Under the pieces are notes generated by a model. That model had not been told where the DNA came from and did no database searches. It was given only the letters and a program-made list of their open reading frames with translations. Position numbers and translations under genes: made by a program. Shown piece by piece: positions 5,513 through 58,474 of a stretch of 64,000 nucleotides of DNA. The DNA lies in contig NZ_ABIZ01000001.1 of assembly GCF_000172155.1 (NCBI RefSeq), positions 8,155,105 to 8,219,104 on the forward strand. Direction: 5' to 3'. Each line of letters opens with the position of its first letter. The stretch's first letter is position 1. The DNA is from Verrucomicrobium spinosum DSM 4136 = JCM 18804 (GTDB taxonomy: Bacteria > Verrucomicrobiota > Verrucomicrobiia > Verrucomicrobiales > Verrucomicrobiaceae).

Positions 5513-8500
5513 CCTTGCTTGCCGCGGGCACCTGTCTGGCTGTTCCAGGCAGGGTGAACTCCTGTGGCCCGATGTACTACGCCGCGGCCCCAGCACTGGC
5601 GGCGTTCCCTGAGCGGCATCCGGTAAAGACGATGATGGATCTGTTTGCCGAGTCACAGAAGGCGGCCACTCCGGCCCCCGCCTGGGAATCCCTGGACGCG
5701 CTGACGCGCCGCATCCTGTCCACGCCCGAGGCGGACTCGCTCCAGATCATTGACCAGGCACTCTCGGAGAATCGGACCTCGGGGCGCTATGAAGCCCGCA
5801 AGGCCAATCTGCTCTGGGACCTGCGGGATCTGCGCACGGCCTGGGACGGCGACTTCAACGAAGAAGCCCGGACCTACATCGATTGGCGGGTGAGGCTGTA
5901 CCATGATGAAAAGCGCGGGCTTCCACCGGCGGTTGCCCGGGAGCATCGCAAGGTGGAGGATGGCTGGTGGTTGTCCCCCCAGCAGAAAGCCCAGGAGGAG
6001 CAGTGGCTGGCCCAGGAACAAGCCGCCATCAGAGCAGGCATCGAAGAAGGAGAACGCGCCATTGCCCAGGCATCGCCGGCGCTGGTCCCTCACTGGATGG
6101 TGGCGAGAGGTGGAGCAGCCTTCCGTCGCGGCGCGCTGGAGGAAGCGGCGGGATGGTTCGAAAAAGTAGTGCAACACCACGCCGGACATCCCCGGAGGGA
6201 GACCGCGCTGTTCATGATAGCCCGCCTGAAGGTCGAGGAAGCCCGGCGGATTTCGCGGAAACAACCGGAGGCTGGAGCTGGGCCTCGTGACCTGTCAGAG
6301 GGGCTGTCCAACGCCCTGGAGATCGCTGAACACGCTCTGGATGACTACAGCAAAGAGTATCCCAAAGGACGCTACACGGTCGAACTCGCCGGCTGGCGCG
6401 GGGCCATACACACGCTGGCCGGGCAGCACTGGCTCGCCCTCGGTGACTATGTCACGCAACTGGATCATGCAGACCATTCAGAAGTGCGTGACTCAGCCGG
6501 GCGTGAGATCGAACGCTGTCTCAAGGAGTTGTTGTTGTCGGACAAGGTCGAGGATGATCCAGAGGGCATCCAGACCGTGCTGGGTCTGCTTGCCACCAGC
6601 CCACCAGCCACGCTCCGGGTCATGGGGTATCTTCTGGATGGTCCGGCGGACCTTGGCTACGAGACCCGCTATTGGGACGAAAGTTACCTGAACCTGGAGA
6701 AGCTGGACAGGATCAAGACCATGCTGAACCGGTCCCGTCATACAGACATGCTTCAACAGCTTGCGGGTGCGGCCATCGACCACGAGAAAACATTCAAGAC
6801 AGCGAAGTGGCATCCTAAATTTGTGGCCTTGATGGCCTGGGCCGCGACGGAAGGCGGTGAACATGCCCAGGCCCTCCGCCTCTGCGAACGCCAGCCCGAA
6901 GCCCTGGCGAATAGCGACGACCTCCAGTACTGCCGCGCAGTCACCCTGCAACGCCTGGGAGACGACGCCAGAGCCGCTGAGGCGCTGCAAGACTTGCGGG
7001 CCCGCTTTCCCGGAAGCCCTCTCTCCAAGGGACTGGCACTCCGGCAGGCCCAAAGTCTGCACCGCTTGGGACGTGATGGCGAAGCCATCGTGGTCCTGAA
7101 CATGGCCATCGCGCCCGTCGGGCCGGCGGAACGGGAGCCGCTTCCGGATGGTGAAAAACCCCCTGTCTTCCTGCACTCCTATGAGGAACTCCGCCAATAT
7201 CTGGACGTGCTGGAGCAGTTCTGCCCTGTGCCGCAACTGGAAGTAGCACTGCAATCCCGACAACTGCCTGCCCCGTCCGCCTTGCGCCTTCATCAACTCA
7301 CCGTGGCCCGCCTGCTGGCGGCTGAAGACTGGGCCTCCCTGCGCCGGGTGCTGGGCAACCTGCCCGAAGGAGCGGATGCCCTCCCGGCGGATGAACTGGA
7401 CCAGCTGGAACATACCTACACAGGCTGGGAATGGCACCAGCCCTCGCCAGTGTATTTCTATGCCAACAGGAGTTTGCACGCCGGTCTGGCCCGGGCGTTT
7501 CTGTTATTGCATGAAACCCCGCGTGACGGCATGGAGCCTGGTCAAAAAGCCCTCTGGCACTGGAGCCTCGCCACGACGTGGGAAGCCTGCCGGGGGCAGC
7601 TGATCCTGTCCGCCGTCCACGCTGGCCCGGGCAGCTACATGGCCAGCGATCATCGCCAGATGGAGCTCCGCCTTCGCGCCAATGCCCTGGCCCTGGGATA
7701 TCGATCCGACACCGTCAATCGAGAGCTGGAGTCGCGTGATGAACTGCGCCATGCCTACGATCACTGCCTTCTGGCAGCGGAAGCAGCTCCAGGCACGCCC
7801 CTGGCCGCCCGGGCTCTGTTCAAGGCTCTCGAAAGCCTGCGACGGATGGCCGAAGTGACACCGTATGCCCAGGGACGGGCATTCGAAGCGGACTGGGGCA
7901 GCGTTTCCCGGCAGCTGTATGATCGCCTGCTCAAAGAATGCCCACAGTCACCCGAGGCCATGCAACTCGCCGCTTGGTGGGACTTTGCCGCCACGCCTGA
8001 GCTTCATGACTGGATGCCGGGAAACGGCTATCCGCCGCGGGAAGACGAGGCGATCCGCGACATCCTGGTTCCCGATCCGTCGGTGAAGGGCCGTGAGCAT
8101 TGGGACCAGCAAACCTGGCAACGAGAATCCGAACGCAGACGCCAGTTCGGTGTCCTCCGGGAGCGAATCCAAAAGCTCGGAAGCCACTTCGAAAGCCGCG
8201 GTCTGGAGGCTGCCAGAACGGAATCCAAAGCCATCCGGGAAGCCCTGATCCCGCTGGCCGATGTCCTGGAATGGACGGAAGCCATCAATGCTCTGGATGG
8301 GACGGACCTCATGTTGAACCAGGCCTCACCAGACCTGGACGCTGTGAAGCGTTATTTCCTCCACATCGGTGGTCCTCCCGTTGAGGAGCCCCCTGTCATC
8401 GCTGGCATTCCCGTGCGGACGACGGCTTCGGACGGGCTGGAAGACATTCGCGCCTACCAGACGGCTGCGGCAGGCATGGAGGAGGATCGGAACAAGCCGG

Positions 8501-9072
8501 ATCGCTGGAGCCTGCAGGAGACGCGCTGGCAGAACTACCTGGCCGCCTATCCCAAGTCACTGAAGCGTGAGGCAGCCCAGTTTCAACTGGCTCGTGCCGT
8601 GACCCGCCAGTACCGGACCTGGACTCATGTGCAAAATCGCAACTGGCCGGATGCACCGTTCATGGGACGGTATGTCCACCTCGTGGTGGAACGTGAAAAG
8701 CCCTTCGAGGCGGCGCGGCCTAATGCGGCTCTGGATGAATATCGCAAGGCCTATCCGCAGGGCCGCTATCTGGCCGATGTGCAGCTGCTCCGGGCTGGCG
8801 TGGCGGTGGATGCCGGGGATTATCCTCTCGCCTTGCGCCTGCTCTGCTCTGCCTTGGCTGATGAGAACCACAAGGAACTGCACATGGACGCCGCGCTGGC
8901 TCTCGCGCAGTGCTTTGAGCTGCTGCACGATCCCGAACCACGTCTCGCCCTGGCCAAAGCCATCGCGGCAGATCCCGCAGCGTGGGACCGGTTCACTGCC
9001 TTCACCCACAGTGCCAGCTGTGGCCAGCGGCTGAGGGTGTATGAGAACTGGGTGTCGAGCTTGAAGAAATGA
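5485..9072 (+). CDS. large exported TPR-type protein
   Basis: A 1195-residue, almost entirely helical protein with a signal peptide (RRSLPLALLAAGTCLAVPG, then VNSCGP, a weak lipobox). Many segments fit the TPR pattern, for example EEAAGWFEKVVQHHAGHPRRETALFMIARLK around residues 215-245, HAQALRLCERQPEALAN near 460, and DYPLALRLLCSALADENHKELHMDAALALAQC near 1115-1145. Such proteins act as periplasmic or outer-membrane scaffolds; no catalytic motif is visible. Its start lies 28 bases inside the upstream DUF3142-like gene, so both are likely made from one transcript. The C-terminus ends in VYENWVSSLKK. The specific role cannot be read from sequence. Confidence 0.7.
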   Translation: MANRRSLPLALLAAGTCLAVPGRVNSCGPMYYAAAPALAAFPERHPVKTMMDLFAESQKAATPAPAWESLDALTRRILSTPEADSLQIIDQALSENRTSGRYEARKANLLWDLRDLRTAWDGDFNEEARTYIDWRVRLYHDEKRGLPPAVAREHRKVEDGWWLSPQQKAQEEQWLAQEQAAIRAGIEEGERAIAQASPALVPHWMVARGGAAFRRGALEEAAGWFEKVVQHHAGHPRRETALFMIARLKVEEARRISRKQPEAGAGPRDLSEGLSNALEIAEHALDDYSKEYPKGRYTVELAGWRGAIHTLAGQHWLALGDYVTQLDHADHSEVRDSAGREIERCLKELLLSDKVEDDPEGIQTVLGLLATSPPATLRVMGYLLDGPADLGYETRYWDESYLNLEKLDRIKTMLNRSRHTDMLQQLAGAAIDHEKTFKTAKWHPKFVALMAWAATEGGEHAQALRLCERQPEALANSDDLQYCRAVTLQRLGDDARAAEALQDLRARFPGSPLSKGLALRQAQSLHRLGRDGEAIVVLNMAIAPVGPAEREPLPDGEKPPVFLHSYEELRQYLDVLEQFCPVPQLEVALQSRQLPAPSALRLHQLTVARLLAAEDWASLRRVLGNLPEGADALPADELDQLEHTYTGWEWHQPSPVYFYANRSLHAGLARAFLLLHETPRDGMEPGQKALWHWSLATTWEACRGQLILSAVHAGPGSYMASDHRQMELRLRANALALGYRSDTVNRELESRDELRHAYDHCLLAAEAAPGTPLAARALFKALESLRRMAEVTPYAQGRAFEADWGSVSRQLYDRLLKECPQSPEAMQLAAWWDFAATPELHDWMPGNGYPPREDEAIRDILVPDPSVKGREHWDQQTWQRESERRRQFGVLRERIQKLGSHFESRGLEAARTESKAIREALIPLADVLEWTEAINALDGTDLMLNQASPDLDAVKRYFLHIGGPPVEEPPVIAGIPVRTTASDGLEDIRAYQTAAAGMEEDRNKPDRWSLQETRWQNYLAAYPKSLKREAAQFQLARAVTRQYRTWTHVQNRNWPDAPFMGRYVHLVVEREKPFEAARPNAALDEYRKAYPQGRYLADVQLLRAGVAVDAGDYPLALRLLCSALADENHKELHMDAALALAQCFELLHDPEPRLALAKAIAADPAAWDRFTAFTHSASCGQRLRVYENWVSSLKK

Positions 9073-9172
9073 GGGGCGGGATGACGAACAGGAAGCACCG
9101 GAGCTTTTGAAGATCATCCATTTTTGATCCTCTTTCCACCTGGCACTCCCAGACTCACGCCAGTGTCTTGCC

Positions 9173-9193
9173 GGCGGCTCGACGCCGCTTTCG
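9173..9193 (-). repeat. dispersed AAAGCGG element, partial copy
   Basis: On the minus strand this reads CGAAAGCGGCGTCGAGCCGCC, identical over these 21 bases to the core of the copy at 9415-9435. Homology appears to stop soon after the core. Confidence 0.6.
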
Positions 9194-9390
9194 CTGGCTG
9201 GTGGCGGGTGGTTGTGCCTTGAACCTTGGTTCGGTTGGTTGGTGTGCGCGTGGCGTGGGGCTTCGCGACGGAGGGAGTGGTGAGGGTGCTCGGCTGATGT
9301 GGAAGGCTGGACGTTCCCAGATGGGCGCAGAGCAGGAGCGAGTCTCCAAGCCAACATTCCGCAGTTCAATTTCAGGCGGCCCTCTCAAAA

Positions 9391-9435
9391 CTCGCAGCAG
9401 CGTTTTGGAGTGCTGGCGGCTCGACGCCGCTTTCG
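9391..9435 (-). repeat. dispersed AAAGCGG element
   Basis: On the minus strand it reads AAAGCGGCGTCGAGCCGCC, then AGCACTCCAAAACGCTGCTG, matching the plus-strand copy at 9651-9711. The core is itself a small palindrome (GCGGC-tcga-CGCCGC). Confidence 0.65.
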
Positions 9436-9650
9436 CCTGCCGCCAAGATATCCTCTCCATCCTCACACGTCCGCCAGCCGGTAATGGAGGCGGGGTCTCC
9501 GGCCCCGCTCAGTCGGACGGCGACTGAGGTGGCGCACGTGTTGAGCGGCAAGTAGCTGCTGGGTCTTGGGCAAATCCATCCCTCCGATCACCCGCGGGGC
9601 TGGAACCCCCGTCTCCTTTATCCTCGCTGCTCCAGTGTCTGGATTCTAGG

Positions 9651-9711
9651 TCATCACAAGGGGTGCCAAAGCGGTGTCGAGCCACACGCACTCCAAAGAC
9701 GCTTCGCGCGG
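9651..9711 (+). repeat. dispersed AAAGCGG element
   Basis: Begins TCATCACAAGGGGTGCCAAA and continues through GCACTCCAAAGACGCT. It aligns over about 60 bases with the copy at 17671-17730 with one single-base gap and roughly a dozen differences. Confidence 0.7.
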
Positions 9712-9836
9712 CTGTGAGCGCTGGAGCCATTGGCGGGTTGTCATCCGTGGGACGCCCCACGTTGCCCGAAGCTCTTTGTGCCTTCGTGCCTTTGTGTGAG
9801 GATGGAAGTTTCTTGGCCCGAGCAGCCCGCGTCCCA

Positions 9837-46573: not shown

Positions 46574-47168
46574 GACTCCTCGAACCTTCTCCCGCCCTGG
46601 TGTGCCGCCATCTCCGGTTTGAAGCCTGTCGCGAGATCCCTCACCAGGCTCGCGGCCCACACAGACCCGGAGTTCTAGATATGAACTTTTCCGAAGATGA
46701 GGGACGACCCAGAAGGGTTTACAGCGCAGAGAATTTGAAAGCTGGTCAACCATCGCAGATTCGAAACCGTATTTGGCACAGACTATCTCCAAAGATTGCC
46801 TGGGGTGGATTTGGATGCGTATAACCGGGACCCTACCTCGACGTCTGCTCCGGCCGTTATCACTCTTTAGGCGGGACCTTGGGACAACTGAACAACACCC
46901 GCAATGCCGAGCACTCTCTCGGAGTCGAGAGCGTCTCCAAAATCCCCGCTCCGATGGACTTTGGGATTGCGAAAATCTCTCCTGAGATCTATCGTCGGTC
47001 GCCGACGCGAGGGGATGAGGCTGAAAGGATTAACCCTTCAGCGCAGGATTCGATGGCACCAAGCACGAATCTGCCATGGGAATGCCCGACAAGTGCTATG
47101 CTGAACCCCGAGGGCGGCCAGGTTGGGCCCGCCTGCTTTCCCCACCCTATCTCTCCACCTGCAGCGAG
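46574..47168. other. intergenic region before the glycan island
   Basis: These 595 bases contain only short open frames with no family likeness. A small CTCTCG-gagt-CGAGAG hairpin lies near 46917-46932. The promoter of the large glycosyltransferase gene should be here; no strong -35/-10 pair stands out. Confidence 0.5.
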
Positions 47169-50100
47169 ATGCCCGTCATGCAAGATAATCAGGAAACTAC
47201 AGCACCAAGAATCAAAATGCGAGAAAACACCCTGGTTGCGGGCGGCCTGCCCCTAGGACGGATGGCCCTGATGGCACCTGAATTCAACACCTACAAAAGC
47301 GCGTGGAACGAACACATTCCATTTGCTTTCTGGCTTGTGGAGCAGCTCCGGCCCGTGTCAATTGTGGAACTCGGCGTTCACACTGGCCTCTCGTATAGTG
47401 CTTTCTGTCAGGCGGTCAAAGTGCTGCATCTTGAATGCAAGTGCCTCGGGATTGACACATTCGAGGGAGATCCCCATGCAGGAGTTTACGGGCCGGAAAT
47501 CCTGAGGGAGCTGAGGAGCCATCATGACCCTCTCTATTCGGGGTTCTCCACCCTGATTCAAGACACTTTCGACAACGCACTGGAACACGTCGCGAACGGG
47601 TCGATTGATCTATTGCATATCGATGGAACCCATTTTTACGAGTCGGCCAAGAACGATTTCGAAAAGTGGCTCCCAAAAGTGAGCACACGCGGTGTGGTGC
47701 TCTTTCATGACACCCAAGAGACCGGGCACGGATTTGGCGTTCACCGCCTCTGGAGCGAGCTGATCCAGCGCTATCCCTCCTTTGAATTTCATCACGGCCA
47801 CGGGCTCGGCGTGCTCGGCGTCGGAAAGGATGTCGCAACTCCCGTAGGGACTTTATTCAGCGTGTCAGAGGCAGACAGATCTGCTTTGCGTCAACTTTTT
47901 TCCAGATTGGGATCAAGGCTTACGCTGGAGCTTCAGACCGCGGAAACGCCCCAACTGAAGAATGCGATGGCTGCCATGGCGCAAACCGTTGCAAAGTTGG
48001 AAAATGAAGCAGCAGCAGCGCGCCTCTCGCTTGAGGCCGCTACGGAGAAGCGGACAGAGCTCTCTCGATCACTCGACGAGGCCATATCCCGATTGAAGGG
48101 AGCCGAGGAGACAACCCATCAGTTGAGAATTTCCGCACTGACAGGAGTGCATGCCATCGGGATCCAGAATCAGCGGCTCGCTTCGGCGGCGCGGTTGGTG
48201 AGGGGGGCAAAAATGGCGGCGAAGCAGCGAGAGGAACACCTGCATGAACAGGAGCGCCACCTTGTGACCTACCGGCAACACTTCATCGCGAGCAGTTTTA
48301 AATCTCGAATCACGGCAAGGGCTCCTTGGACGGGCGGAAAAAAGCTTCGAATGCAGCAAAGCCTTATTCTGCAATCAGGAGTCTTTGATGCTGAGTACTA
48401 CCAAAGCCAGCTTCCCGAGGGATTCACTGTCAAGGATCCTGTACTTCACTATTTAGTCATTGGCTGGAAGTGCGGCCTGTCGCCCCATCGACTCTTTGAC
48501 GCATCATGGTATCAGAAGACGTATCGACGGGAGTTAAAAGGCGGGGAGCCGCTGACGAATTTCCTGATCGAAGGGTGGAAGGAGATGCGTCTGCCCAACT
48601 GCCTCTTCCATACCTCGTGGTACATGAAGCGCTATCAAGAGGAGATACCCGAAGGGCAAAATCCCCTCTCGGACTATCTCCAGCATGGCACCACAAAAAA
48701 GCGATGGCCCCATCCCCTTTTTGATGGTGGGTGGTATGTGTCCAAATACCGGAAACAACTTTCCAGCAAAACTCCCCTGGAGCATTTTCTTAGTGATGCC
48801 AATGCGTGGAAGCACCGCCCCAATGGCCTCTTCGACACGACATGGTATGTGGCGGAATACCTTGGCAAAAGCGGAAAGGGGATGATCCCCCTGTTGCACT
48901 ATTGCGAGATCGGAGCGCAACTGAAGTTCTCACCCAATTCTCTATTTGATGTGCCCTGGTACCTTGGCCGGCATCCGGAGGTTGCGAAGCTTCCCCATTC
49001 GGTCCTTGAGTATTATCTTCATCACTTGACCAGCGAGTGCTTGCAGCCCCACCCGCTGTTTGATGCAGCCTGGTACCTTGAACAATATGCGCCGGAGCTT
49101 GAGCCCGGGGCGACCGCCTTCTCGCATTACCTGGATCGCGGCTGGAGGCTGGGGTTTTCTCCACACCCATCTTTTGATGCCAAAAGATATCTCGACCGAA
49201 ACCATGATGTGGTGGCACTTGGAATGGAACCTCTCAGGCACTATCTGGGGTTCGGCTGGAAAGAGGGCCGGGCTCCGAATGCCTGGTTTGACCCCAGAGA
49301 CTATCTGCAGCGCAATCCAGATGTGGCGGCCGCCGGGCTTGAGCCGCTCACTCACTATGTAGAGCATGGTCAATTTGAAGACCGGTATCGAGAAAGAGAT
49401 TCCAGCCTGGCACTTCTGGGGGCACCCGAACCTCTAGACCGGTATGACTGCTGGCTTGAGACAAACACCTTTACCGAGGCGGCCGAAGAGGACCTGCGAA
49501 TTGCCCTGACTCGCGCAACCGGATCCCTGCCGAAGATCTCTGTCGTGATGCCAGTTTACAACACGCCTCTCTGGGCGCTACAGAAGGCTGTTCAAAGCGT
49601 GACAGCGCAGATCTATGACAACTGGCAACTTTGCATCGCGGATGACTGCAGCACGGAACCGGATATTCGCCAATATCTGCAGGCCCTTCAAGCATCCGAC
49701 TCCAGAATCTCAGTCACGTTTCTAGAACAAAATTCGGGAATAAGCGCTGCGACGAATGCTGCAGCGGCACTTGCTGAAGGGGAGTTCCTGGCGTTTTTGG
49801 ATCATGACGATGAATTGACCATCGATGCCCTTGCCGAGATGGCTCTTGGACTTGCTGCGCATCCGGACTGGGACATGGCTTACTCGGACGATGATCTCAT
49901 TGATCCAGCGGGCAGGCGTCATCGTCCTCAGTTTAAGCCCGACTGGTCGCCTACTCTGCTGTTGTCCTTCATGTATATGAGCCATCTTTTGATGGTCCGG
50001 CGTTCTGTTTTCGAAAATTTGGGAGGGTTCCGAGTGGGGTTTGAGGGTGCCCAGGACTATGATTTCGCTCTCCGTGCGTCAGAGGCAGTAAACCAGGTGG

Positions 50101-53100
50101 GGCACATTCCCAAAATTCTCTATCATTGGCGAGTCATGCCTGGGTCCACCGCCACGGGTGGTGCCGCCAAACCAGAAAGCTTTGAACGGGGACGACTCGC
50201 CGTCCAGCAAGCCGTCGAACGCCGAAAGATCTCCGCCAAGGTTAATCACCCTGATTGGGCTCTACAGGCAGGATGCGGCATTTTCTCCCTGCACCATCCT
50301 GATCATGGCCCCCAAGTTGACATTGTGATCATGAATAGAAACGGGGGGAAACTGCTTGAAAGGTGCCTGCAGTCCCTTCAGATGACGACTTATCAAAATT
50401 ATGTCGTCACGGTCGCGGACAACACCAGCAACGATCCGGGCACCCTGGAAGTGCTACAGAAGAGCGGGGCAAAAATCATCACCCTTCCAGATGAAGTGCC
50501 CGGGAGGTTCAGCTTTTCCAATCTCTACAATCGCGCCCTGAGCCAGTCCACAGCGGAGTTTGTGCTGCTGCTCAACAATGACACCGAAGTCAAAAATCCT
50601 CGGTGGCTTTCCCAGATGATGGGTTATGCGCTGATGGAAGGTGTGGGAGCAGTGGGTGCCTGTCTGCTTTTTCCGGACCACACCGTCCAGCACGCGGGGA
50701 TGCTGCTGGGCTGCCATGAAGGCAAGGTTGGGCATGCATTTAAAAACACGCCTGCGCATGAGCATGGCTACATGGCTCTGCGTGCGGTGACCCGCGAGAG
50801 CAGTGGCGTGACTGCGGCCTGTATGCTCATACGGCGCGACTGCTACTTTTCGGTGGGCGGGCAGGACGAGCAGCGCTTCGCCGTCGGCTACAATGATGCT
50901 GACCTCTGCTTGAAACTCGGCGATAAAGGACTCCGGAGCATTTACTGCGGTGAGGCAGAGCTCTTCCACCATGAAGGGAAAAGCCGCGGAACCGGGAATG
51001 ACGATCCGCTAGAGGAGGCTGCAATCCGTGCGGAAGTCCGCCATCGACCCGACCGCTTCTACAACCTCAACCTCTCACTGGAAAACGAGCGTTTTGAAGT
51101 GGGGACCCGCCGCCCATTGCCTCATGTTACCCGCGCCACACGCACAGCCTTTGCCACCCACAATTTGAATCATGAGGGTGCCCCGCGCCTGTTGCTGGAG
51201 CTGATCACTGGCTTGAAAACACGCGGCCACGTGGAGCCAGTGGTGGTATCACCTGTGGACGGCCCCCTCCGGCAGGAATTCGAACAAGCCGGCATACAAG
51301 TTGCCGTAGGACCGATTTCCGAAGGAGGAAGTTCGATCGAAGAGCTTCAGGAATATCTGGCGAAAATTCTGCGCGAATGCAGGGCTGAACTTGTTGTTGC
51401 CAATACTCTCCAGACATGGTGGGCGGTTACCCTTGCGCATCGCGAAAACACCCCCTCCATTTGGCACGTTCACGAAAGTGAACCTTGGGACACCTACTTT
51501 GACTACCTGCCTTTATCCGTGCGAAGCGAGGCTTACCGTGCATTCGCCATGCCCTATCGGATCATCTTTGTCGCCCGAGCCACGCTGCGCGGGTGGGAGG
51601 CGCTGAATTCAAGGAAAAATTTTGAGTGTATCCCTGGCGCATTGGATCTGGATTATCTGGATGCCAAAATTGACAATGCCTCACGAGACGAACTCCGCAG
51701 CCAACTGAATATTGCAGCTGACGAGGTGGTGCTCATTCTTGTGGGCACCGTGTGTGATCGCAAAGGCCAGGCAGACGCAGTAGAAGCGATGGAAATTTTG
51801 GCTCAAGATGTCCTCAAGCGGGTCAGGCTCATTCTAGTCGGATATAGAGAGTCCCTCCACTACGGGCAAACGCTTGTTCGGAAGGTCGAGAGCTTGGCCC
51901 CGGCTTTGAGGGGGAAAATTGTCATCGAGAAGGAGCGCGCCGACTGCATTCGGTACGTCAAGGCCGCAGATATCGCATTGTGCACATCAAGGGTCGAATC
52001 GTATCCGCGTGTCATATTGGAGGCGATGGCCTGTGGGTTGCCCATCATCACTACGCCCGTGTTTGGGATTGTAGAGCAAGTCCGACCCGGTAGAAACGCC
52101 ATCTTCTATCAACCGGGGCGAATATCTGAGCTGGCCCGCGCGATAGAGACTCTCGTTCGCGATGAGGACATGCGTCGACGTTTTGCGGCGAGCTCGCCAG
52201 AGGTACTCTCCGCTCTCCCTGGGTATGATGAAGTGATGGAACGTCACGCAAAGTTAATTCATGAGGGCAGGCTAACCTGTGAGCGCAATCTTGCGATTGG
52301 AGAGCCCAGAGTGACGATCAGACCTTCAGAGCACAGGAGAACTGAGGAACTTCCTCCGGAAGCCATGGGGCAGGAGGTTGATCCCGCACCAAACAAATTT
52401 GCAGCCATACAAGGGATCATAGATCGAAAGCTGCCGAAGCACGTCCGGGAAAATCGCCGCCGGATTGCAGCAAACTATTTGGTGAGAGGCAGCGGGCTGG
52501 AGATAGGCGCGTTTCATACACCGCTCGAACTTCCGCCAGGTGTGGCTACGCGCTACGTGGACCGCCGTTCGGTTGCAGATCATATTGCCCAGTTCCCCGA
52601 ACTTGACCCTAACGATCTGGTCCCAGTCGATATCCTTGATGATGGCGAGACGCTGGCCAGCATCGGAGCTGACTCCGTTGACTTCATCATCGCAAGTCAC
52701 ATGCTGGAACATTGCGAAAACCCATTGGGCACAGTGCGAGCTCACTTGAGCAAGATCAGGCAGGGTGGATGGCTTTTCTATGTCGTTCCTGACAAGAGGA
52801 ACAGCTTCGACGTGGATCGTCCACTCACACCATTTGAGCATCTGGTCGGCGATGATGCAGATCATGGAGAGGGCTCCCGCTTCGCCCATTACTTAGAGTG
52901 GGCAACGGATGTGAAGAAGATTGTCGATGACGTCCATGCCAAGGAGGAAGCCTCAAAGCTGATGGAAATGCGTCATAGCATTCACTTTCACGTCTGGGAC
53001 GGGGCCTCGTGGCTGGATTTCCTCGTCCGCTGCCGAACACATCTTGATAGCCGCTTTGAAATGGTTCACTACGAACTCGCAGGTCCAGAGCTGATCTGTG

Positions 53101-53117
53101 TCTTGAGGAAAGTCTAA
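47169..53117 (+). CDS. multidomain glycosyltransferase/methyltransferase with nine FDxxWY repeats
   Basis: A protein of 1982 residues (from ATG 47169; in-frame starts at 47076, 47082, 47178 and 47217 are possible). Domains in order: methyltransferase ~55-230 (VELGVHTGLSYSAF, LLHIDGTHFYESAKNDF, GVVLFHDTQ); coiled coil ~265-330; nine repeats of about 37 residues, ~405-740, each with (L/V)FDxxWYxxxY...PLxHYLxxG; GT2 ~786-1010 (ISVVMPVYNTP, LDHDDE, SDDDLID); second GT2 ~1047-1280 (VDIVIMNRNGG, LLNNDTEV); GT4 ~1324-1690 (TRTAFATHNLNHEG, ESYPRVILEAMACGLPI); methyltransferase ~1775-1982 (LEIGAFHTPL, ASHMLEHCENP). It probably builds and caps a surface glycan. No membrane segment is seen, so it is cytoplasmic or peripheral. 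Confidence 0.88.
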   Translation: MPVMQDNQETTAPRIKMRENTLVAGGLPLGRMALMAPEFNTYKSAWNEHIPFAFWLVEQLRPVSIVELGVHTGLSYSAFCQAVKVLHLECKCLGIDTFEGDPHAGVYGPEILRELRSHHDPLYSGFSTLIQDTFDNALEHVANGSIDLLHIDGTHFYESAKNDFEKWLPKVSTRGVVLFHDTQETGHGFGVHRLWSELIQRYPSFEFHHGHGLGVLGVGKDVATPVGTLFSVSEADRSALRQLFSRLGSRLTLELQTAETPQLKNAMAAMAQTVAKLENEAAAARLSLEAATEKRTELSRSLDEAISRLKGAEETTHQLRISALTGVHAIGIQNQRLASAARLVRGAKMAAKQREEHLHEQERHLVTYRQHFIASSFKSRITARAPWTGGKKLRMQQSLILQSGVFDAEYYQSQLPEGFTVKDPVLHYLVIGWKCGLSPHRLFDASWYQKTYRRELKGGEPLTNFLIEGWKEMRLPNCLFHTSWYMKRYQEEIPEGQNPLSDYLQHGTTKKRWPHPLFDGGWYVSKYRKQLSSKTPLEHFLSDANAWKHRPNGLFDTTWYVAEYLGKSGKGMIPLLHYCEIGAQLKFSPNSLFDVPWYLGRHPEVAKLPHSVLEYYLHHLTSECLQPHPLFDAAWYLEQYAPELEPGATAFSHYLDRGWRLGFSPHPSFDAKRYLDRNHDVVALGMEPLRHYLGFGWKEGRAPNAWFDPRDYLQRNPDVAAAGLEPLTHYVEHGQFEDRYRERDSSLALLGAPEPLDRYDCWLETNTFTEAAEEDLRIALTRATGSLPKISVVMPVYNTPLWALQKAVQSVTAQIYDNWQLCIADDCSTEPDIRQYLQALQASDSRISVTFLEQNSGISAATNAAAALAEGEFLAFLDHDDELTIDALAEMALGLAAHPDWDMAYSDDDLIDPAGRRHRPQFKPDWSPTLLLSFMYMSHLLMVRRSVFENLGGFRVGFEGAQDYDFALRASEAVNQVGHIPKILYHWRVMPGSTATGGAAKPESFERGRLAVQQAVERRKISAKVNHPDWALQAGCGIFSLHHPDHGPQVDIVIMNRNGGKLLERCLQSLQMTTYQNYVVTVADNTSNDPGTLEVLQKSGAKIITLPDEVPGRFSFSNLYNRALSQSTAEFVLLLNNDTEVKNPRWLSQMMGYALMEGVGAVGACLLFPDHTVQHAGMLLGCHEGKVGHAFKNTPAHEHGYMALRAVTRESSGVTAACMLIRRDCYFSVGGQDEQRFAVGYNDADLCLKLGDKGLRSIYCGEAELFHHEGKSRGTGNDDPLEEAAIRAEVRHRPDRFYNLNLSLENERFEVGTRRPLPHVTRATRTAFATHNLNHEGAPRLLLELITGLKTRGHVEPVVVSPVDGPLRQEFEQAGIQVAVGPISEGGSSIEELQEYLAKILRECRAELVVANTLQTWWAVTLAHRENTPSIWHVHESEPWDTYFDYLPLSVRSEAYRAFAMPYRIIFVARATLRGWEALNSRKNFECIPGALDLDYLDAKIDNASRDELRSQLNIAADEVVLILVGTVCDRKGQADAVEAMEILAQDVLKRVRLILVGYRESLHYGQTLVRKVESLAPALRGKIVIEKERADCIRYVKAADIALCTSRVESYPRVILEAMACGLPIITTPVFGIVEQVRPGRNAIFYQPGRISELARAIETLVRDEDMRRRFAASSPEVLSALPGYDEVMERHAKLIHEGRLTCERNLAIGEPRVTIRPSEHRRTEELPPEAMGQEVDPAPNKFAAIQGIIDRKLPKHVRENRRRIAANYLVRGSGLEIGAFHTPLELPPGVATRYVDRRSVADHIAQFPELDPNDLVPVDILDDGETLASIGADSVDFIIASHMLEHCENPLGTVRAHLSKIRQGGWLFYVVPDKRNSFDVDRPLTPFEHLVGDDADHGEGSRFAHYLEWATDVKKIVDDVHAKEEASKLMEMRHSIHFHVWDGASWLDFLVRCRTHLDSRFEMVHYELAGPELICVLRKV

Positions 53118-53191: not shown

Positions 53192-55690
53192 TCATTTTGT
53201 AAATAGAGAGGAGGGCCCTGCGTAACGGCGACTTGCTGGCTTTGCCTGACGCTTCGCGATGTGACTGCTTTTCCAGGCCGTGTTGTCCTTCTTCAGGTTG
53301 GGGTTGTAGAACGGATCGCCTTGAGAAATCAACCAACCCCAATTCGACAAGAACCGGCTTGAGTCCGCAGGATGAGGATCATGGGAAAAGCTCTTGCCAC
53401 GAGTGGCAGACTCATGGTGGAGGACGGAGGTTTCGCCGCAGTAGAGGGTGCGATACCCAATCTGCCAAAGCCGCAGACAGAGATCCGTGTCATTATAGCC
53501 CACCTGCATCTCTTCACTAAAGCCGCCGACGGCTTCAAACGCCTGCCGCCTGAAGAGCGCACACGCGGTCGTAATTGCCGCCACTTCTCTCGTCACCCGG
53601 AGCATCCCAAGGTAACCGGGGGCGGGGTTGCCTTTTTCGTCCGTGGACGGCAAAAATTTTCCCAAATGCTCCGCCGTTCCGCAAAGCCCTACGGACACGC
53701 CCGCGTGCTGTATGGTTGCTTCGTCGGGATAAAGGAGCATAGGAGCTACCGCCCCAACGGTCTCATCAACAGCCGCCTCAAGCAATCTCTCCAGCCATTG
53801 CGGCTCCTTGGCTTCAATGTCATTGTTGCACAGAAGGAGATACTGGGCATCGCCAGCACCGCGACGAACGCCAAAATTATTGATCGCCGAATAATTAAAG
53901 GGGCCGCTGTAAGGAAGCACTAGATGCTTTTGGGCGAGAATTTCGAGCAACTCCTGCGCATCAGGCTCGTCGGACTGGTGGTCAACAATAACGATTTTAC
54001 AAGGGAGTTTTTCCGGCCACGTTTTCTCAAGGCTGGCCACCGTCTGGGCCAGCAAGTGCGCCTGGTTCTTTGTCGGGATGATCACCGCTACGGAAGAACG
54101 CTCAAGATCAACCTTGGGGCGGATGGAAAAGTAGTTGAAGGCGAATCCTGGCTCTACGTTGCCTACCACGCCTGTTCGCTTCAGGTGCTCCGTAAGGATA
54201 TTCGTAGATATCTCTGTCACTTCCTCCTGCATCAAATGGCCCGCACTGCTGGGCATCTGGCGCCACAGATACAAAATTTCCGGAATGTGAACGACGATGC
54301 GGGCCTTCTCCGCTGCGCGCAGAATCAAGTCGTAGTCTTGGGAGATCTGAAGTTTCTCATCGAACCCTCCAATTTCGTTGAGCAGGCGGGCACTGAACGC
54401 CACCAGATGCACAATATAGGGATGGGACCGGAGATAGCTGAGTGAGAAAGCGGGCCGGTAAATCCCGCCTAAAAACTCTCCAGCCAGATCAATGTGCCCT
54501 TCATCGCTATAGAGGAGGTCAGCGCCGGTTGCGAAGCTTGTCTGGGCCAGCCGGAGCAGGGCGACTGGGGAGATCAGGTCGTCGTGGTCCATCAGGGTGA
54601 TGATGTCCCCGGTCGCTGCGCGCAGTGCGGCGTTTGACGCGGCAGCGATGCCCCGGTTTTCACTGCACCGGATCACGACGATTCTTTCGTCCCACTTCTC
54701 AGCCTCGGTCAGCAGCTCTCGCGTGCTTGGGCTGGTTGAAGCGTCGTCGGCAATGCAGAGCTGCCAGTTTGGATAGAGCTGCGCCATTACGGAGCGGATG
54801 GCTGAGCGCAGATAGTCTGTGGGGGTGTTAAACACCGGCATGATGACCGAGACCAGCGGCTTGTGGGACATCGAATGAATCTCCTTCTGAAACATCCGCT
54901 TTTCAGACGAAGTCACTTGCATGATCTCGCTCACCTTTGCCACACGCCCCGAAGCGCTTTCAGCGCTGGGCTCAGCGCGCTGAGCCCCTGCCGCCACCCT
55001 CCCTTGATAGGTTTGCAAGCTGTGCCACTGGTTGCGGTCATCCAGGACTTCAAGAGTCAGACTGAAACGTGAAGGAAGCTTTTTGACTTCTATCTCGAAC
55101 CCGCAACGGTCGCTATTGGGATACGCGGGAAAGACGGCTCTTACATCGAACCGCTTCCGTCCATAGGCCCCTTCGTACTTCGTGTCGCCGATCACCGCCC
55201 GTATCCCTTGGATGAACTCGCCCGACTTCGTAAAACACCACCCTACCAGCGTCGTTGAATCATCGGCAAGATTCAGTGACTTGGGTTGCTCCAGTTGAAA
55301 CTCAAAACCGCTTTCCGCCTGGGCGGCTTTCCGCCGCTTGAAGAAAAATGCGGGCAGTGTCCAGCGGAACTGGAGTGTGCGTTCAGCCTCGCGCAAGGTG
55401 ATTTTTCTTCGGTCGCTTTCTTTTCGCAGTCGATCCATTTCATTGCGTGCCCAGTCCAGCTCGCGCCGTACATGAGCAAGCTCAGAACGGAGAAAACGAG
55501 CAGTTTCCTCTGCACTGGCGGCCGTCTGGGCCTTCTGCTCCAGCTCGCTTATACGCTTGCGGCTCGCGGCCAATTGCTCCTCGATATCCTCACGGTCTCC
55601 ATCAGCCCGGGAATATTGGGAAGGGAGGCTGTCCGTCTCCGATGGAGACGCACTGCCAGAGGCCGGGGGAACAATATCAGGGTAGGACAT
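53192..55690 (-). CDS. tandem GT2 glycosyltransferase with N-terminal beta-sandwich
   Basis: An 832-residue protein. Residues ~25-105 are coiled coil (ASRKRISELEQKAQTAASAE, LAHVRRELDWARNEMDRLRK). Residues ~135-230 form a beta-sandwich-like module (TTLVGWCFTKSGEFIQGIRA ... GAYGRKRFDVRAVFP ... CGFEIEVKKLPSR) shared with the two upstream genes. A first GT2 starts near 280 (VSVIMPVFNTPTDYLRSAIR, MDHDDLIS) and a second near 530 (VAVIIPTKNQAHLLAQ, LLCNNDIEAKE, VGYNDTDLCLRL). The second half strongly resembles the GT2 pair of the giant protein facing it. ATG 55690 is chosen because the longer frame from 55765 adds an unlikely Cys/Arg-rich leader. Confidence 0.85.
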   Translation of the reverse strand: MSYPDIVPPASGSASPSETDSLPSQYSRADGDREDIEEQLAASRKRISELEQKAQTAASAEETARFLRSELAHVRRELDWARNEMDRLRKESDRRKITLREAERTLQFRWTLPAFFFKRRKAAQAESGFEFQLEQPKSLNLADDSTTLVGWCFTKSGEFIQGIRAVIGDTKYEGAYGRKRFDVRAVFPAYPNSDRCGFEIEVKKLPSRFSLTLEVLDDRNQWHSLQTYQGRVAAGAQRAEPSAESASGRVAKVSEIMQVTSSEKRMFQKEIHSMSHKPLVSVIMPVFNTPTDYLRSAIRSVMAQLYPNWQLCIADDASTSPSTRELLTEAEKWDERIVVIRCSENRGIAAASNAALRAATGDIITLMDHDDLISPVALLRLAQTSFATGADLLYSDEGHIDLAGEFLGGIYRPAFSLSYLRSHPYIVHLVAFSARLLNEIGGFDEKLQISQDYDLILRAAEKARIVVHIPEILYLWRQMPSSAGHLMQEEVTEISTNILTEHLKRTGVVGNVEPGFAFNYFSIRPKVDLERSSVAVIIPTKNQAHLLAQTVASLEKTWPEKLPCKIVIVDHQSDEPDAQELLEILAQKHLVLPYSGPFNYSAINNFGVRRGAGDAQYLLLCNNDIEAKEPQWLERLLEAAVDETVGAVAPMLLYPDEATIQHAGVSVGLCGTAEHLGKFLPSTDEKGNPAPGYLGMLRVTREVAAITTACALFRRQAFEAVGGFSEEMQVGYNDTDLCLRLWQIGYRTLYCGETSVLHHESATRGKSFSHDPHPADSSRFLSNWGWLISQGDPFYNPNLKKDNTAWKSSHIAKRQAKPASRRYAGPSSLFTK

Positions 55691-55999
55691 AACTGTTTCA
55701 CTCGCGTCACCTGCACATTGCCTTCGCTGAAGCGCCGCACCTGCAGCGGAAGAGCCCAGGAACATAGATCGCCATTCTTGGAATCAGCAACCTGAATCTC
55801 ACTTTCGTCTCATCGTCAGCCGCGCAATGAGGATGGTTCTTTTTGCCATGCGGACGATAGACGGATCCTCTCATGACCGGTGCAGTGAGAGCTGGAGGGT
55901 CTGCAATTCTCGCAACCCGGCAACAAGACCTGGCCATCATGCCGCATTTGCGCGTGTATTTCCTCATGCTTCACCCTCTTTGGTGGAAGGCCCTTCACT
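55691..55999. other. intergenic gap within the glycan operon
   Basis: These 309 bases separate the TylF-type gene from the GT2 gene. A hairpin CTCTCA...TGAGAG lies near 55869-55892. Short frames here lack family likeness. An internal promoter is possible. Confidence 0.45.
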
Positions 56000-57085
56000 T
56001 CAATCCTTCCGCCAAAAAGCGCCCGTCCAGTCGATCATTGAAACGGGTGCATGAATACCTTTTTCGGCACGATAATCCCGCACCGCCTGGCGACAGGCGG
56101 GGATGGCACCGTAATCGTCAATGACACAGAATCCACCGCGAGAGAGTTTGGGGTAAAGATGCGTGAGAACGTCCATCGTTGACTCATACATATCCCCGTC
56201 CAGCCGAAGTACGGCGAGCTGCGCAATATCTGCTTTGGGCATGGTCTGCGAAAACAAGCCCTTAAGAAACCGCACCTGATCATCGAGCAGTCCGTAGCGG
56301 GCGAAGTTTCCCTTCACTCTTTCAAGCGGTATGGCGAGCTCTTTGAACGTATAGAGGATGTCGCCCGAGTCTGCCGGATACTTTTCTTCATCAGGTTGAG
56401 GAAGTCCCGCGAACGAATCCGCGACCCACACTTTTCGACTGTGCTCTTCATACGCCTGCAGCACTCCTCGGAGCATGATGCACGCGCCTCCGCGCCAGAC
56501 ACCGGTCTCTATAAAATCTCCCGGCACGTTCTCCTCAAGGGCTGTCTCAGCGCAAGCCCTAAGATGCCTCATCCTCTGCTGGCCGATCATGCTGTGAGCA
56601 TGGCCTGGCCAGTCCTGCCCGTCATAGCGGACCAAAAGCTCGGCATCTTCAGCATATGGGATGCCAAGCAATGTTTTCTCCAGTAGATCAAGATATCGCG
56701 CCTGTGGATGCTGCGAATCCACCCATGGCAGACTTTCATGACTCACCCCTTTAGGCACATCTCGTTCGAGGGTGATCTTTCTACCCACACGCCCCAATTC
56801 GAATCCATTTCGATTAAAAAATATCAGATCCAAGCGGTGCTCGCCTCCCGGCAGTCCTGATGGCAAAACAATATGGGCGCAGAACCCTACGTGGACTGTA
56901 GGACAGCTTGCCTGAAAGGCCTCCAAAACATCCGGCCTGGCACTACCGCAGGAAATGGGGCCTATCGTTTGACCGGCAATTTCCAAGCGTCCGTACCAGA
57001 TGATTTCATCTGAAACAAATGCCCAGCCCGAGAGATGCCACTCGGATTCGGTTTCAACAATTAAATGGTCGATATGGATATTCAC
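56000..57085 (-). CDS. TylF/MycF-type methyltransferase with N-terminal beta-sandwich
   Basis: A 361-residue protein from GTG 57085. Residues ~1-110 are the beta-sandwich-like module (WHLSGWAFVSDEIIWYGRLE ... GSARPDVLEAF ... GFCAHIVLPSGLPGGEHRLD). Residues ~130-361 are a TylF/MycF-type SAM methyltransferase: YLDLLEKTLLGIPY, ETGVWRGGACIMLRG (SAM loop), VWVADSFAGLP, LRLDGDMYESTMDVL and GGFCVIDDYGAIPACRQAV with metal-binding Asp residues. TylF enzymes methylate sugar hydroxyls using Mg2+. In this operon it probably O-methylates a glycan sugar. It lies 35 bases after the sulfotransferase gene. Confidence 0.88.
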   Translation of the reverse strand: MNIHIDHLIVETESEWHLSGWAFVSDEIIWYGRLEIAGQTIGPISCGSARPDVLEAFQASCPTVHVGFCAHIVLPSGLPGGEHRLDLIFFNRNGFELGRVGRKITLERDVPKGVSHESLPWVDSQHPQARYLDLLEKTLLGIPYAEDAELLVRYDGQDWPGHAHSMIGQQRMRHLRACAETALEENVPGDFIETGVWRGGACIMLRGVLQAYEEHSRKVWVADSFAGLPQPDEEKYPADSGDILYTFKELAIPLERVKGNFARYGLLDDQVRFLKGLFSQTMPKADIAQLAVLRLDGDMYESTMDVLTHLYPKLSRGGFCVIDDYGAIPACRQAVRDYRAEKGIHAPVSMIDWTGAFWRKD

Positions 57086-57120
57086 TGGTGTGGCTTTTGA
57101 CTGACTGACTTCTTAAATGT

Positions 57121-58308
57121 TTAGCTATCCCAATGCTGCATGACCCTCCCGATCCTAGTCTCAACCCGCTCTCGTACCCCGGAAAAACGCTCTGCCAGCA
57201 TGGCTTTGGTTTCTTTGCGTAAGACAGAAAGGTACGCTGCCTGGTTCTGCGGCTCCGTGCTCACCCGGATCGATGGGTCCACGCCGAGGAACGCGAAAAT
57301 TTCTCTCTGCCAATGTACTGGATCACTGCTCCACTCACCCAACGTCAGAACAAAAAACTGCCCGGCAGGAAAATGATGCAGATAGTTTTCAAGTTGGAGA
57401 TCATATCGGGATGATCGAACGTACATGTAGTTCCAAAAATACTGGGGGCAGTTCCTCCTGAACAGAGGATCGGCGAAGCGAAGTTCCTCTTCCTCCAGAG
57501 CCAGCTCAAAGGCGGCAAGCGTTTCGTGCCCGTGGCGCTTCATGTGCTGAAAGAGCGAGTGAGCGCGATGAACAGGATTTCGCAGAATGAGGAGAAACCT
57601 CGCTTCAGGAAAAAGCTGCCGCAACACCGGAGCGGTTTCAAAGCTGCTGAAGTAAGCATGCGAAGCTTCGCCATATCGCGTCTTTCCCTCCATTTCCGGA
57701 AACAACCGGAAATATTGCATGGGATTGCTGACGACCTGAAAGCCAGATGTAAAAAAGCTGGGCTCCTTAATAGCTGAGAGGTGAATCTGTGGGTGCTGTT
57801 TGAGGGCATGATACAGGCTGGTAGTGCCGCACTTTCCTGCACCGAGGATGAAAAAATTAGGGGGAGCCAGCTTCTCGTTCATGCCGACATGGGACATCAA
57901 ATGCTCTCCGGCATTCCCCGTGCCCACGGGTTGAGAGCTTGGGATTCCCAAGTCGAGAGGCGGAGAGGAACCGTCCTCAATGGTTACCTCCCGGCAAAGC
58001 TCCACCCGGAAGGATGAAGAGGTGGTGAATACCAGTTTTAGGTTAAAGGAATCGAAGCCTTCGGCCACGTTCCTGATCTCGACCTGGCCGACGTACCCAA
58101 CGCCATCAATCCTGCAACGTCCTCTGAAGTGAGCTTTCACGTCAGGACGAGAAATCCCGTAGGTTAGGTGCCCCAGTGGAGAATGGTTCCACCACACCTG
58201 AGCCTCGACAATTTGCCCCTGTTCCGCGAAGGCCCAGCCCACCACCTGGATCAACACTTTGGCCCCCATCTTCCTAGCCACTGCCCTGTCGATAACCGCT
58301 TCTACCAT
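57121..58308 (-). CDS. PAPS-dependent sulfotransferase with N-terminal beta-sandwich
   Basis: A 395-residue protein. Residues ~10-125 carry the beta-sandwich-like module (IQVVGWAFAEQGQIVEAQVW ... GISRPDVKAHF ... GVGYVGQVEIRNV). The sulfotransferase domain, ~150-395, has the 5'-phosphosulfate loop FILGAGKCGTTSLYHAL, KEPSFF, the 3'-phosphate motif RFLLILRNPVHRAHSLFQHM and the carbohydrate-type EWSSDPVHWQREIFAFLGV. It transfers sulfate from PAPS, here probably to a surface glycan. It is the first gene of the minus-strand operon. ATG 58308 is used because residues from 58386 on have no counterpart in the family. Confidence 0.88.
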   Translation of the reverse strand: MVEAVIDRAVARKMGAKVLIQVVGWAFAEQGQIVEAQVWWNHSPLGHLTYGISRPDVKAHFRGRCRIDGVGYVGQVEIRNVAEGFDSFNLKLVFTTSSSFRVELCREVTIEDGSSPPLDLGIPSSQPVGTGNAGEHLMSHVGMNEKLAPPNFFILGAGKCGTTSLYHALKQHPQIHLSAIKEPSFFTSGFQVVSNPMQYFRLFPEMEGKTRYGEASHAYFSSFETAPVLRQLFPEARFLLILRNPVHRAHSLFQHMKRHGHETLAAFELALEEEELRFADPLFRRNCPQYFWNYMYVRSSRYDLQLENYLHHFPAGQFFVLTLGEWSSDPVHWQREIFAFLGVDPSIRVSTEPQNQAAYLSVLRKETKAMLAERFSGVRERVETRIGRVMQHWDS

Positions 58309-58474
58309 GAGCAAGAAATCATTCCAAAACGCAATGGATGCCACTGAAATTGAACAACCTGTCGTCAAATCACGCACGCAAAGCATTTCTGTCGTACCCT
58401 CAGCTCAAAACGAGTCCCACAACCCGACCACTTGAGCTGAAACTTCACGCCTCCTCAGCGCGTTGCCTCACTCC

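What the first reader, a model, noticed from the sequence alone, without database searches (positions are those of the whole stretch)
53192..58308. Three unrelated enzymes in one operon share an N-terminal beta-sandwich module
The sulfotransferase, the TylF-type methyltransferase and the tandem GT2 protein each begin with a stretch of about 100 residues having the same order of motifs: V/LxGW(A/C)F, a strand pair, GxxR(P)DVxxxF, a GF/GY strand, and a final strand pair. The catalytic domains that follow are unrelated. A common module in three enzymes of one pathway suggests docking to a shared scaffold or recognition of the same glycan. I know of similar modules in other surface-glycan enzymes but no described role.
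Basis: partly seen in the sequence, partly recalled or inferred. Interest (0 to 1): 0.72.

Follow-up and report, generated by a model that had tools for sequence, protein, structure and literature searches.

The report
Shared Ig-like module on glycan enzymes
Three different sugar-modifying enzymes encoded side by side each carry the same kind of small immunoglobulin-like domain, one that recurs on many bacterial surface-sugar enzymes, matches no entry of the two domain catalogues searched, and most likely helps each enzyme hold on to its growing sugar chain.

Summary
The sulfotransferase, TylF methyltransferase and tandem GT2 share a ~105-residue module, predicted as an Ig-like beta-sandwich with the same order of elements in the two copies modelled. 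Of 68 such modules none matches Big_7, and no Pfam or NCBIfam model matches more than one, none better than E 0.03. It is homologous to Big_7 repeats of a clostridial amidase (hhalign 98.5%) and, more distantly, to the C-terminal domain of enterococcal phage endolysins, proposed elsewhere to bind carbohydrate.

The module is found in 33 of 387 sampled genomes of the phylum, own included, with up to 17 copies in nine ORFs of one cluster. Of 112 carrier ORFs 103 have a glycosyltransferase, methyltransferase or sulfotransferase domain behind it.

The modules' own tree follows the attached enzyme (10 label changes, shuffled mean 62.8), not the genome (163; printed shuffles 155-158), which argues against one interchangeable dock. 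I favour acceptor-glycan binding tuned to each enzyme (0.40) over oligomerisation, scaffold docking or spacer; no function has been shown. New variant of a known kind.

The parts
57121..58308 (-). sulfotransferase gene (395 aa from the likely Met start; ORF extends to 58386)
   Evidence: Pfam Sulfotransfer_3 2.7e-13 and Sulfotransfer_1 2.1e-11; start by comparison with G014
57976..58308 (-). Ig-like module of the sulfotransferase
   Evidence: scores against shuffles; AF2 pLDDT 91.5, strands up to residue 111
56000..57085 (-). TylF-type methyltransferase gene (361 aa)
   Evidence: Pfam TylF 3.9e-100
56762..57085 (-). Ig-like module of the TylF protein
   Evidence: fold not modelled separately
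53192..55765 (-). tandem GT2 protein (857 aa from the first start; true start unknown)
   Evidence: Pfam Glycos_transf_2 6.5e-43, two stretches; the model's GT part aligns to chondroitin polymerase K4CP, Z 27.0
54995..55306 (-). Ig-like module of the GT2 protein (residues about 154-257)
55406..55597 (-). likely coiled coil before the GT2 module (residues about 57-120)
   Evidence: only sub-threshold Pfam matches, several of them to coiled-coil families
47076..53117 (+). convergent neighbour, 2013 aa: Methyltransf_24, FDxxWY repeats, GT2, GT2, GT4, C-terminal methyltransferase; no Ig-like module reported
   Evidence: domains; repeats; no module match there in the whole-genome scan at E <= 1

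Best explanation
The module is an Ig-like (Big_7-type) accessory domain on enzymes that build or decorate a surface polysaccharide. It probably sits in the cytoplasm, tethered by a short linker in front of each catalytic domain. I think it binds the acceptor glycan chain (or its lipid-linked form), holding the enzyme on the growing polymer and raising affinity or processivity, as was suggested for the Ig-like carbohydrate-binding domains of TarS. Each copy is tuned to its own enzyme. Shown here: homology, predicted fold, the attached enzymes, clustering in the genome, and evolution with the attached enzyme. Inferred: cytoplasmic location, one common pathway, glycan binding, effect on catalysis.
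For: The enzyme classes that carry it use different donors (nucleotide sugar, SAM, PAPS: general knowledge of the families) and, if they serve one pathway, share only an acceptor. In the 103 carrier ORFs scanned the only Pfam families listed at E <= 1e-4 are glycosyltransferases, methyltransferases and sulfotransferases. Relatives sit on other glycan-active proteins: a clostridial amidase/glucosaminidase and enterococcal endolysins (A7 without Clostridium rows scores 41.1 against a maximum of 16.1 in 100 column shuffles), whose C-terminal domain was proposed to be a carbohydrate-binding module (PMC10167349, passages seen). Similar fusions occur on Azospirillum plasmids: before GT2-GT2 (L104), before GT2 (L107), and before a region that looks like a methyltransferase by eye (L105). 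Precedents: in TarS a construct without the Ig-like domains had lower acceptor affinity and processivity (PMC5156392, passages); an Ig-like fold was read as a CBM in a Klebsiella O7 terminator enzyme (PMC11231755, passages).
Against: No ligand, binding surface or activity has been tested. The nearly invariant residues (G24, W25, R54, D56, G71, F/Y72) look like a fold signature rather than a sugar-binding patch, though exposure was not measured. The modules of the locus are only about 20% identical to each other, not what one shared epitope would predict. The TarS paper also calls its domains dispensable for catalysis, with minimal effect on kinetics. Ig-like domains are often plain spacers. 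The nearest solved folds (C-terminal domain of the sulfite oxidase family, Z 9.3, rmsd 2.6, 92 residues) are not glycan binders and lie near the background of Z 7-8. The link to EfAmi1 by sequence alone is weak (E 0.017 whole sequence, 0.12 for the stretch), and A2 against the endolysin alignment gives only 84%.
Confidence: 0.4

Rival explanations
1. Oligomerisation module: the Ig-like domain makes homo-oligomers of each enzyme, as in TarS where Ig-like domains form the trimer.
For: TarS precedent. The best structural neighbours are C-terminal domains of sulfite oxidases/dehydrogenases, recalled to be dimerisation domains. Evolution with its own enzyme and position fits a self-interaction.
Against: No oligomer was predicted; VIA Z 9.3 is barely above background. 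Two or three modules in a row in many proteins are not needed for a simple dimer.
Confidence: 0.25
2. Docking to a shared protein partner or membrane complex, so that the enzymes of one pathway assemble together.
For: Modules cluster strongly: 3 of 4 reported copies of this genome lie within 3.3 kb of 8.2 Mb (crude chance estimate 2e-6); thirteen genomes of family f9 have 4-12 reported matches in stretches of about 11-54 kb. Complexes around a coiled-coil scaffold are known in ABC-dependent O-antigen assembly (PMC11231755), and the GT2 protein has a likely coiled coil.
Against: The conserved motif is shared with a clostridial amidase and phage endolysins, where such a partner is unlikely. Modules of one genome are not more alike than expected (163 changes; the five printed shuffles 155-158), and first and second modules of GT4 proteins separate with 1 change among 71 rows, so they are not interchangeable. 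Not all enzymes of the clusters carry one.
Confidence: 0.15
3. Passive spacer or stabilising cap of the catalytic domain with no binding function.
For: The distance from module to GT2 domain falls in two narrow classes, 35-46 or 93-107 residues, in 53 of 60 GT2 proteins measured. Related tandem GT2 proteins seem to exist without it: of six plasmid GT2 loci examined, one (L104) has a module by profile. In the tblastn list 35 of 40 rows shown (of 80 records) begin behind the module; that alone proves nothing, since L104 is one of these rows.
Against: A fold kept on six or more enzyme families, often in tandem, is more than a cap needs. The linker directly behind the module is predicted disordered (residues 117-129 of the model under pLDDT 50), so a rigid cap is unlikely.
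Confidence: 0.15

Closest known systems
Pfam PF17957 Big_7 (bacterial Ig domain), as in the Clostridium cibarium amidase L018
   Same: Homologous over ~90 columns (hhalign 98.5% and 98.8%, E 2e-15 and 7e-17), with GW, RPDV and GF/GY at the same places. The clostridial repeats match Big_7 at 2.7e-53, eight stretches.
   Different: 0 of 68 modules from the window's phylum match Big_7 at E <= 1. Here the module precedes biosynthetic enzymes; there it is a repeat in what looks like a secreted wall hydrolase.
C-terminal domain of enterococcal phage endolysins (EfAmi1, PDB entry 8C4D)
   Same: GW...RPDV...GF order; sequence match E 0.017 and 0.011 for the whole sequence, 0.12 and 0.04 for the stretch; profile match 94.2% with A7, 93.2% without clostridial rows, well above 100 column shuffles, 84.0% with A2.
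   Different: Attached to a peptidoglycan amidase or muramidase. The domain itself is not in the crystal; carbohydrate binding was proposed from models (PMC10167349, passages).
TarS Ig-like CBM/trimerisation domains (S. aureus wall teichoic acid GT2)
   Same: Ig-like accessory domain on a GT2 that acts on a polymer (PMC5156392, passages).
   Different: C-terminal, tandem and starch-binding-like in TarS; N-terminal here; no sequence relation was tested.
Carbohydrate-binding modules of O-antigen assembly (Wzt C-terminus; Ig-like fold in Klebsiella ORF6 O7)
   Same: Carbohydrate-binding or Ig-like domains on proteins of surface-polysaccharide assembly (PMC11231755, passages).
   Different: Wzt is a transporter part that reads the chain terminus; here several enzymes of one cluster carry the module. 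Homology not tested.

Membership tests
Pfam Big_7 (PF17957) | profile score at or above the curated cut-off | tested here: not met
   No Big_7 match in the three window proteins at E <= 1 nor in any of 68 modules including the three of the window
Pfam Big_7 (PF17957) | homology to repeats that do meet the cut-off | tested here: met
   A7 without Clostridium vs A3: 98.6%, score 82.1, maximum 22.4 in 100 column shuffles
Ig-like / E-set beta-sandwich | seven or more strands in a two-sheet sandwich | tested here: met
   AF2 model of the sulfotransferase module, pLDDT 91.5, pTM 0.80, eight strands; 811 of 997 chains compared have VIA Z >= 5, the best including PKD, fibronectin-like and sulfite oxidase C-terminal domains. 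Foldseek gave no match with E <= 0.001. A prediction, not a solved structure
Carbohydrate-binding module | non-catalytic domain that binds carbohydrate | not testable with these tools
   no binding data; only position, attached enzymes and distant relatives
TarS-type oligomerisation domain | C-terminal tandem Ig-like domains | tested here: not met
   one module, N-terminal to the catalytic domain, in each of the three window proteins
TarS-type oligomerisation domain | forms the trimer | not testable with these tools
   oligomeric state not predicted
Chondroitin-polymerase-like dual GT2 (GT part only) | two GT-A domains of the GT2 family in one chain | tested here: met
   Pfam GT2, two stretches; K4CP 2z86_D Z 27.0, rmsd 2.0, 238 residues, model 145-405; sugar specificity not tested

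The most novel reading that the evidence does not exclude
A family of Ig-like modules, without an entry in Pfam or NCBIfam, serves as a common recognition layer of cytoplasmic polysaccharide assembly: in one cluster up to nine enzymes with up to 17 modules each read the growing chain through homologous but individually tuned modules, so that order and position of each modification are set by module specificity. Phage endolysins and clostridial wall hydrolases use the same fold to read finished wall glycan outside the cell.
Probability: 0.25. Interest if true: 0.78.

Novelty: new variant of a known kind. Interest (0 to 1): 0.55.

Why it matters
Non-catalytic binding domains are well studied on enzymes that degrade polysaccharides, much less on those that build them. 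A domain that can be recognised by sequence, sits on about a hundred glycosyltransferases, methyltransferases and sulfotransferases in the loci examined, and has no Pfam or NCBIfam model gives a handle on how bacteria keep several enzymes on one polymer. It marks otherwise anonymous surface-glycan clusters and offers small domains (about 110 residues) that can be expressed and tested for glycan binding directly.

Tried and rejected
Considered and rejected: chance similarity of beta-rich sequence (shuffles); three different known domains; a feature limited to this genome; recent copying of one module between the three genes (nearest relatives are the counterparts in another genus). L012 (G015, E 0.0076) is a false positive: the matched ORF is a ClpB-type AAA protein. 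Plasmid searches with the GT2 and sulfotransferase modules alone found nothing; the whole GT2 part as query led to Azospirillum. Of six plasmid records then searched, two (both Azospirillum) had matches; that search did not report the module of L104, which has E 1.5e-5 in the smaller set, and its second module is seen by eye only. Sequence search of solved structures with the three-row alignment gave only a parvalbumin at E 1.4. A clostridial FDxxWY-like repeat next to Ig-like repeats (L117) was seen by eye but not confirmed: protein E 0.0097 with no convincing single repeat. Of the GT2 model, VIA rows covered residues 158-679 only, so its module was not compared with the PDB; the TylF copy was not modelled (two jobs only). 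Families not listed by VIA are not excluded. PHROGs and PADLOC were not searched. Papers describing this module were not found in searches; that is the PMC open subset only, and word searches cannot find a domain described under another name.

Counting notes: one search's tally of 9 of 57 genomes includes the window's own genome and the false positive. One search scored at most 12 candidates in the large genomes, so its copy counts are lower bounds. One search classed 112 ORFs with profiles made from members of the same set; 9 had a module only, five of these cut by a locus end. Searches scanned 103 of the 112; of the nine left out four are cut by a locus end, two were scanned, three were not scanned. 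(profile A7): 193 module hits in 117 ORFs, 190 kept by coverage, plus the 3 of the window, 28 genomes; 20 rows without an assigned catalytic class were not counted in the enzyme test. Two of the unassigned carriers are methyltransferases. Of 50 genome-label shuffles only five values were printed. In one search the best 25 of 32 families of the GT2 protein were shown.
Full report
WHAT WAS CHECKED. On the minus strand the window holds a sulfotransferase (57121-58308), a TylF-type methyltransferase (56000-57085) and an 857-aa protein with two GT2 domains (53192-55765), with gaps of 35 and 234 bases. The window lies in a single-contig genome of 8,220,857 bases. Each protein has a stretch of about 105 residues before its catalytic domain. 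In the whole proteins no Pfam match at E <= 1 lies over these stretches and the only NCBIfam match seen there is at chance level (a sigma factor model over part of the sulfotransferase, E 0.15, 11.7 bits, cut-off 290). The GT2 protein has weak, sub-threshold coiled-coil matches further N-terminal.

THE MODULES ARE RELATED. Local alignment scores exceed shuffles by z = 11.3, 7.0 and 3.8, and G-W, F, G..R.DV...F and G are invariant in the three-way alignment. A profile of the three finds one more copy in this genome, in front of another tandem GT2. No match was reported in the 2013-aa convergent neighbour.

FOLD. AlphaFold2 on the sulfotransferase module with a 73-row alignment gives pLDDT 91.5 and pTM 0.80: strands 2-14, 17-28, 33-40, 43-47, 49-52, a helix 55-64 that begins in the RPDV motif, strands 71-79, 87-96, 101-111. 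In the model of the GT2 protein (713 residues, 25 rows, pLDDT 83.9) the module has strands 10-16, 27-35, 43-48, 51-59, helix 62-67, strands 78-83, 89-97, 103-113, i.e. the same order with one short strand less; the linker 117-129 has pLDDT under 50. The two models were not superposed on each other and the TylF copy was not modelled.

RELATIVES OF THE MODULE. A pattern scan of genome contigs confirmed one locus, a Clostridium cibarium protein with a Glucosaminidase domain, eight copies of the module-like domain and an Amidase_3 domain; these copies match Pfam Big_7. Profile comparison of the three window modules with these repeats gives 98.5%, E 2.1e-15. Of 68 modules from the window's phylum none matches Big_7 at E <= 1, and no Pfam or NCBIfam model matches more than one of them (best E 0.03 and 0.043). 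In solved-structure sequences the top hit of two profiles is 8c4d, the E. faecium prophage amidase EfAmi1 (E 0.017 and 0.011 for the sequence, 0.12 and 0.04 for the stretch), in the C-terminal domain that was lost from the crystal and that its authors propose to be a carbohydrate-binding module (PMC10167349, passages seen). A search with that piece found 57 phage records, 52 of them Enterococcus phages. Eight examples, aligned, match A7 at 94.2%, A2 at 84.0% and the clostridial repeats at 94.4%; A7 without clostridial rows gives 93.2%, score 41.1 against at most 16.1 in 100 column shuffles and 9.3 reversed.

WHERE IT OCCURS. Of 57 relatives searched (own genome included) 9 had a match at E <= 0.01, one of them the false positive L012 (checked). 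Two genomes of another genus of the family carry the sulfotransferase and TylF pair with modules; one of them (G014) also has the GT2. Of 387 genomes of the phylum, own included, 33 matched at E <= 0.001. Thirteen genomes of one family (f9) have 4 to 12 reported matches within stretches of about 11-54 kb; with the fuller profile the fetched loci of G318 and G374 have 17 modules in nine ORFs each. Of 199 genomes of the phylum of Clostridium 5 matched at E <= 1e-4, three with tandem copies in one ORF; what these proteins are was looked at only for L018 and L117. Of six plasmid records two, both Azospirillum, had matches: a module before GT2 (L107), before a region that looks like a methyltransferase by eye but has no Pfam match (L105, annotated hypothetical), and at the C-terminus of large hydrophobic proteins (L106; L108 with DUF7657). 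A further Azospirillum gene has a module before GT2-GT2 by a smaller-set search (L104). An Aminobacter record annotated as a SAM-dependent methyltransferase matches an Azospirillum module (E 2e-7).

ATTACHED ENZYMES. Among 112 carrier ORFs in the fetched loci of the phylum the commonest architectures are module-module-GT4 (25), module-GT2-GT2 (14), module-module-GT2-GT2-GT4 (13), module-GT4 (11), module-GT2 (11), module-GT2-GT2-GT4 (7) and GT4-module-GT2-GT2 (7), with two each of sulfotransferase, TylF, Methyltransf_24 and GT2_4; in all 103 with an assigned catalytic domain one lies behind a module; nine had a module only. Pfam on 103 ORFs lists only glycosyltransferase, methyltransferase and sulfotransferase families at E <= 1e-4. 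Two further carriers are methyltransferases. Other proteins of these clusters lack it, for example two methyltransferase-containing proteins and large hydrophobic proteins.

EVOLUTION. A tree of 193 modules from 28 genomes, built from the module sequences alone, needs 10 changes of attached enzyme class (shuffled mean 62.8, 0 of 200 as low), while genome labels need 163 changes, no fewer than shuffles (155-158 in the five printed of 50). In GT4 proteins with two modules, first and second modules separate with one change among 71 rows; in GT2 proteins with three among 60. The three sulfotransferase modules form one side of a branch (support 89), as do the three TylF modules (99); the window GT2 module pairs with that of G014 (100). 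The simplest reading is that each module has stayed with its enzyme, and in its position, since before these genera split. Caution: 117 columns for 193 rows, FastTree, long branches; many copies are counterparts in related genomes, which by itself clusters enzyme labels. The contrast with the genome labels is the result, not the deep order.

INTERPRETATION. The enzymes that carry the module differ in donor and chemistry but, if they serve one pathway, share the acceptor chain. Relatives sit on wall hydrolases and endolysins, also glycan-active. A glycan-binding accessory domain is the simplest common denominator, with TarS as the nearest studied analogue: its Ig-like CBM domains form the trimer, and a construct without them had lower acceptor affinity and processivity, although its authors also call the domains dispensable for catalysis (PMC5156392, passages seen). 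The same paper makes oligomerisation the main rival. A shared scaffold is least consistent with the tree. None of these readings has been tested biochemically.

NOVELTY. Ig-like accessory domains on glycan enzymes are a known kind. What I did not find in Pfam or NCBIfam, or in the papers listed by searches, is this module as a recurring part of polysaccharide biosynthesis enzymes of several chemistries, many times in one cluster. I file it as a new variant of a known kind.

Noticed in passing
47076-53117 (+), residues about 436-775: Nine tandem repeats of about 38 residues (FDxxWY...) in the 2013-aa convergent neighbour, between a Methyltransf_24 domain and the GT2 domains; no Pfam match there at E <= 1. 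The same repeats lie in the C-terminal part of the module-bearing TylF proteins of G004 and G014, and occur in several ORFs beside module genes in G092 and G201; no shuffled copy matched.
   Followed up: partly
L019:12173-15049 and L020:13794-16454: In two relatives the TylF gene continues into a region that by eye resembles the Methyltransf_24 start of the window's 2013-aa gene, and into FDxxWY repeats: pathway parts fused there and separate here.
   Followed up: partly
L061:5363-7867 and 7639-9753 (G374), and similar stretches in G318: Large hydrophobic proteins of 700-835 aa without a reported module, on the strand opposite to the module genes in the G374 cluster; L061:5363-7867 has no Pfam match at E <= 0.01.
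   Followed up: partly
L106, L108 (Azospirillum plasmid W02): Large hydrophobic proteins with the module at the C-terminus; L108 matches DUF7657/DUF7654.
   Followed up: no
53192-58386 and 47076-53117 against the whole window: GC is lower in these genes (0.53-0.56) than in the window (0.60), as is common for surface-polysaccharide loci (general knowledge).
   Followed up: no
L117:892-3135 (Clostridium, G431:C10): A second clostridial protein with at least five Ig-like copies, some with RDD or RND in place of RPD; its C-terminus resembles FDxxxY repeats by eye, not confirmed by profile.
   Followed up: partly
L019:15268-16284 and L020:9500-10519: A similar ORF of about 340 aa lies next to the module genes in both relatives (N-termini alike by eye); not identified.
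   Followed up: no
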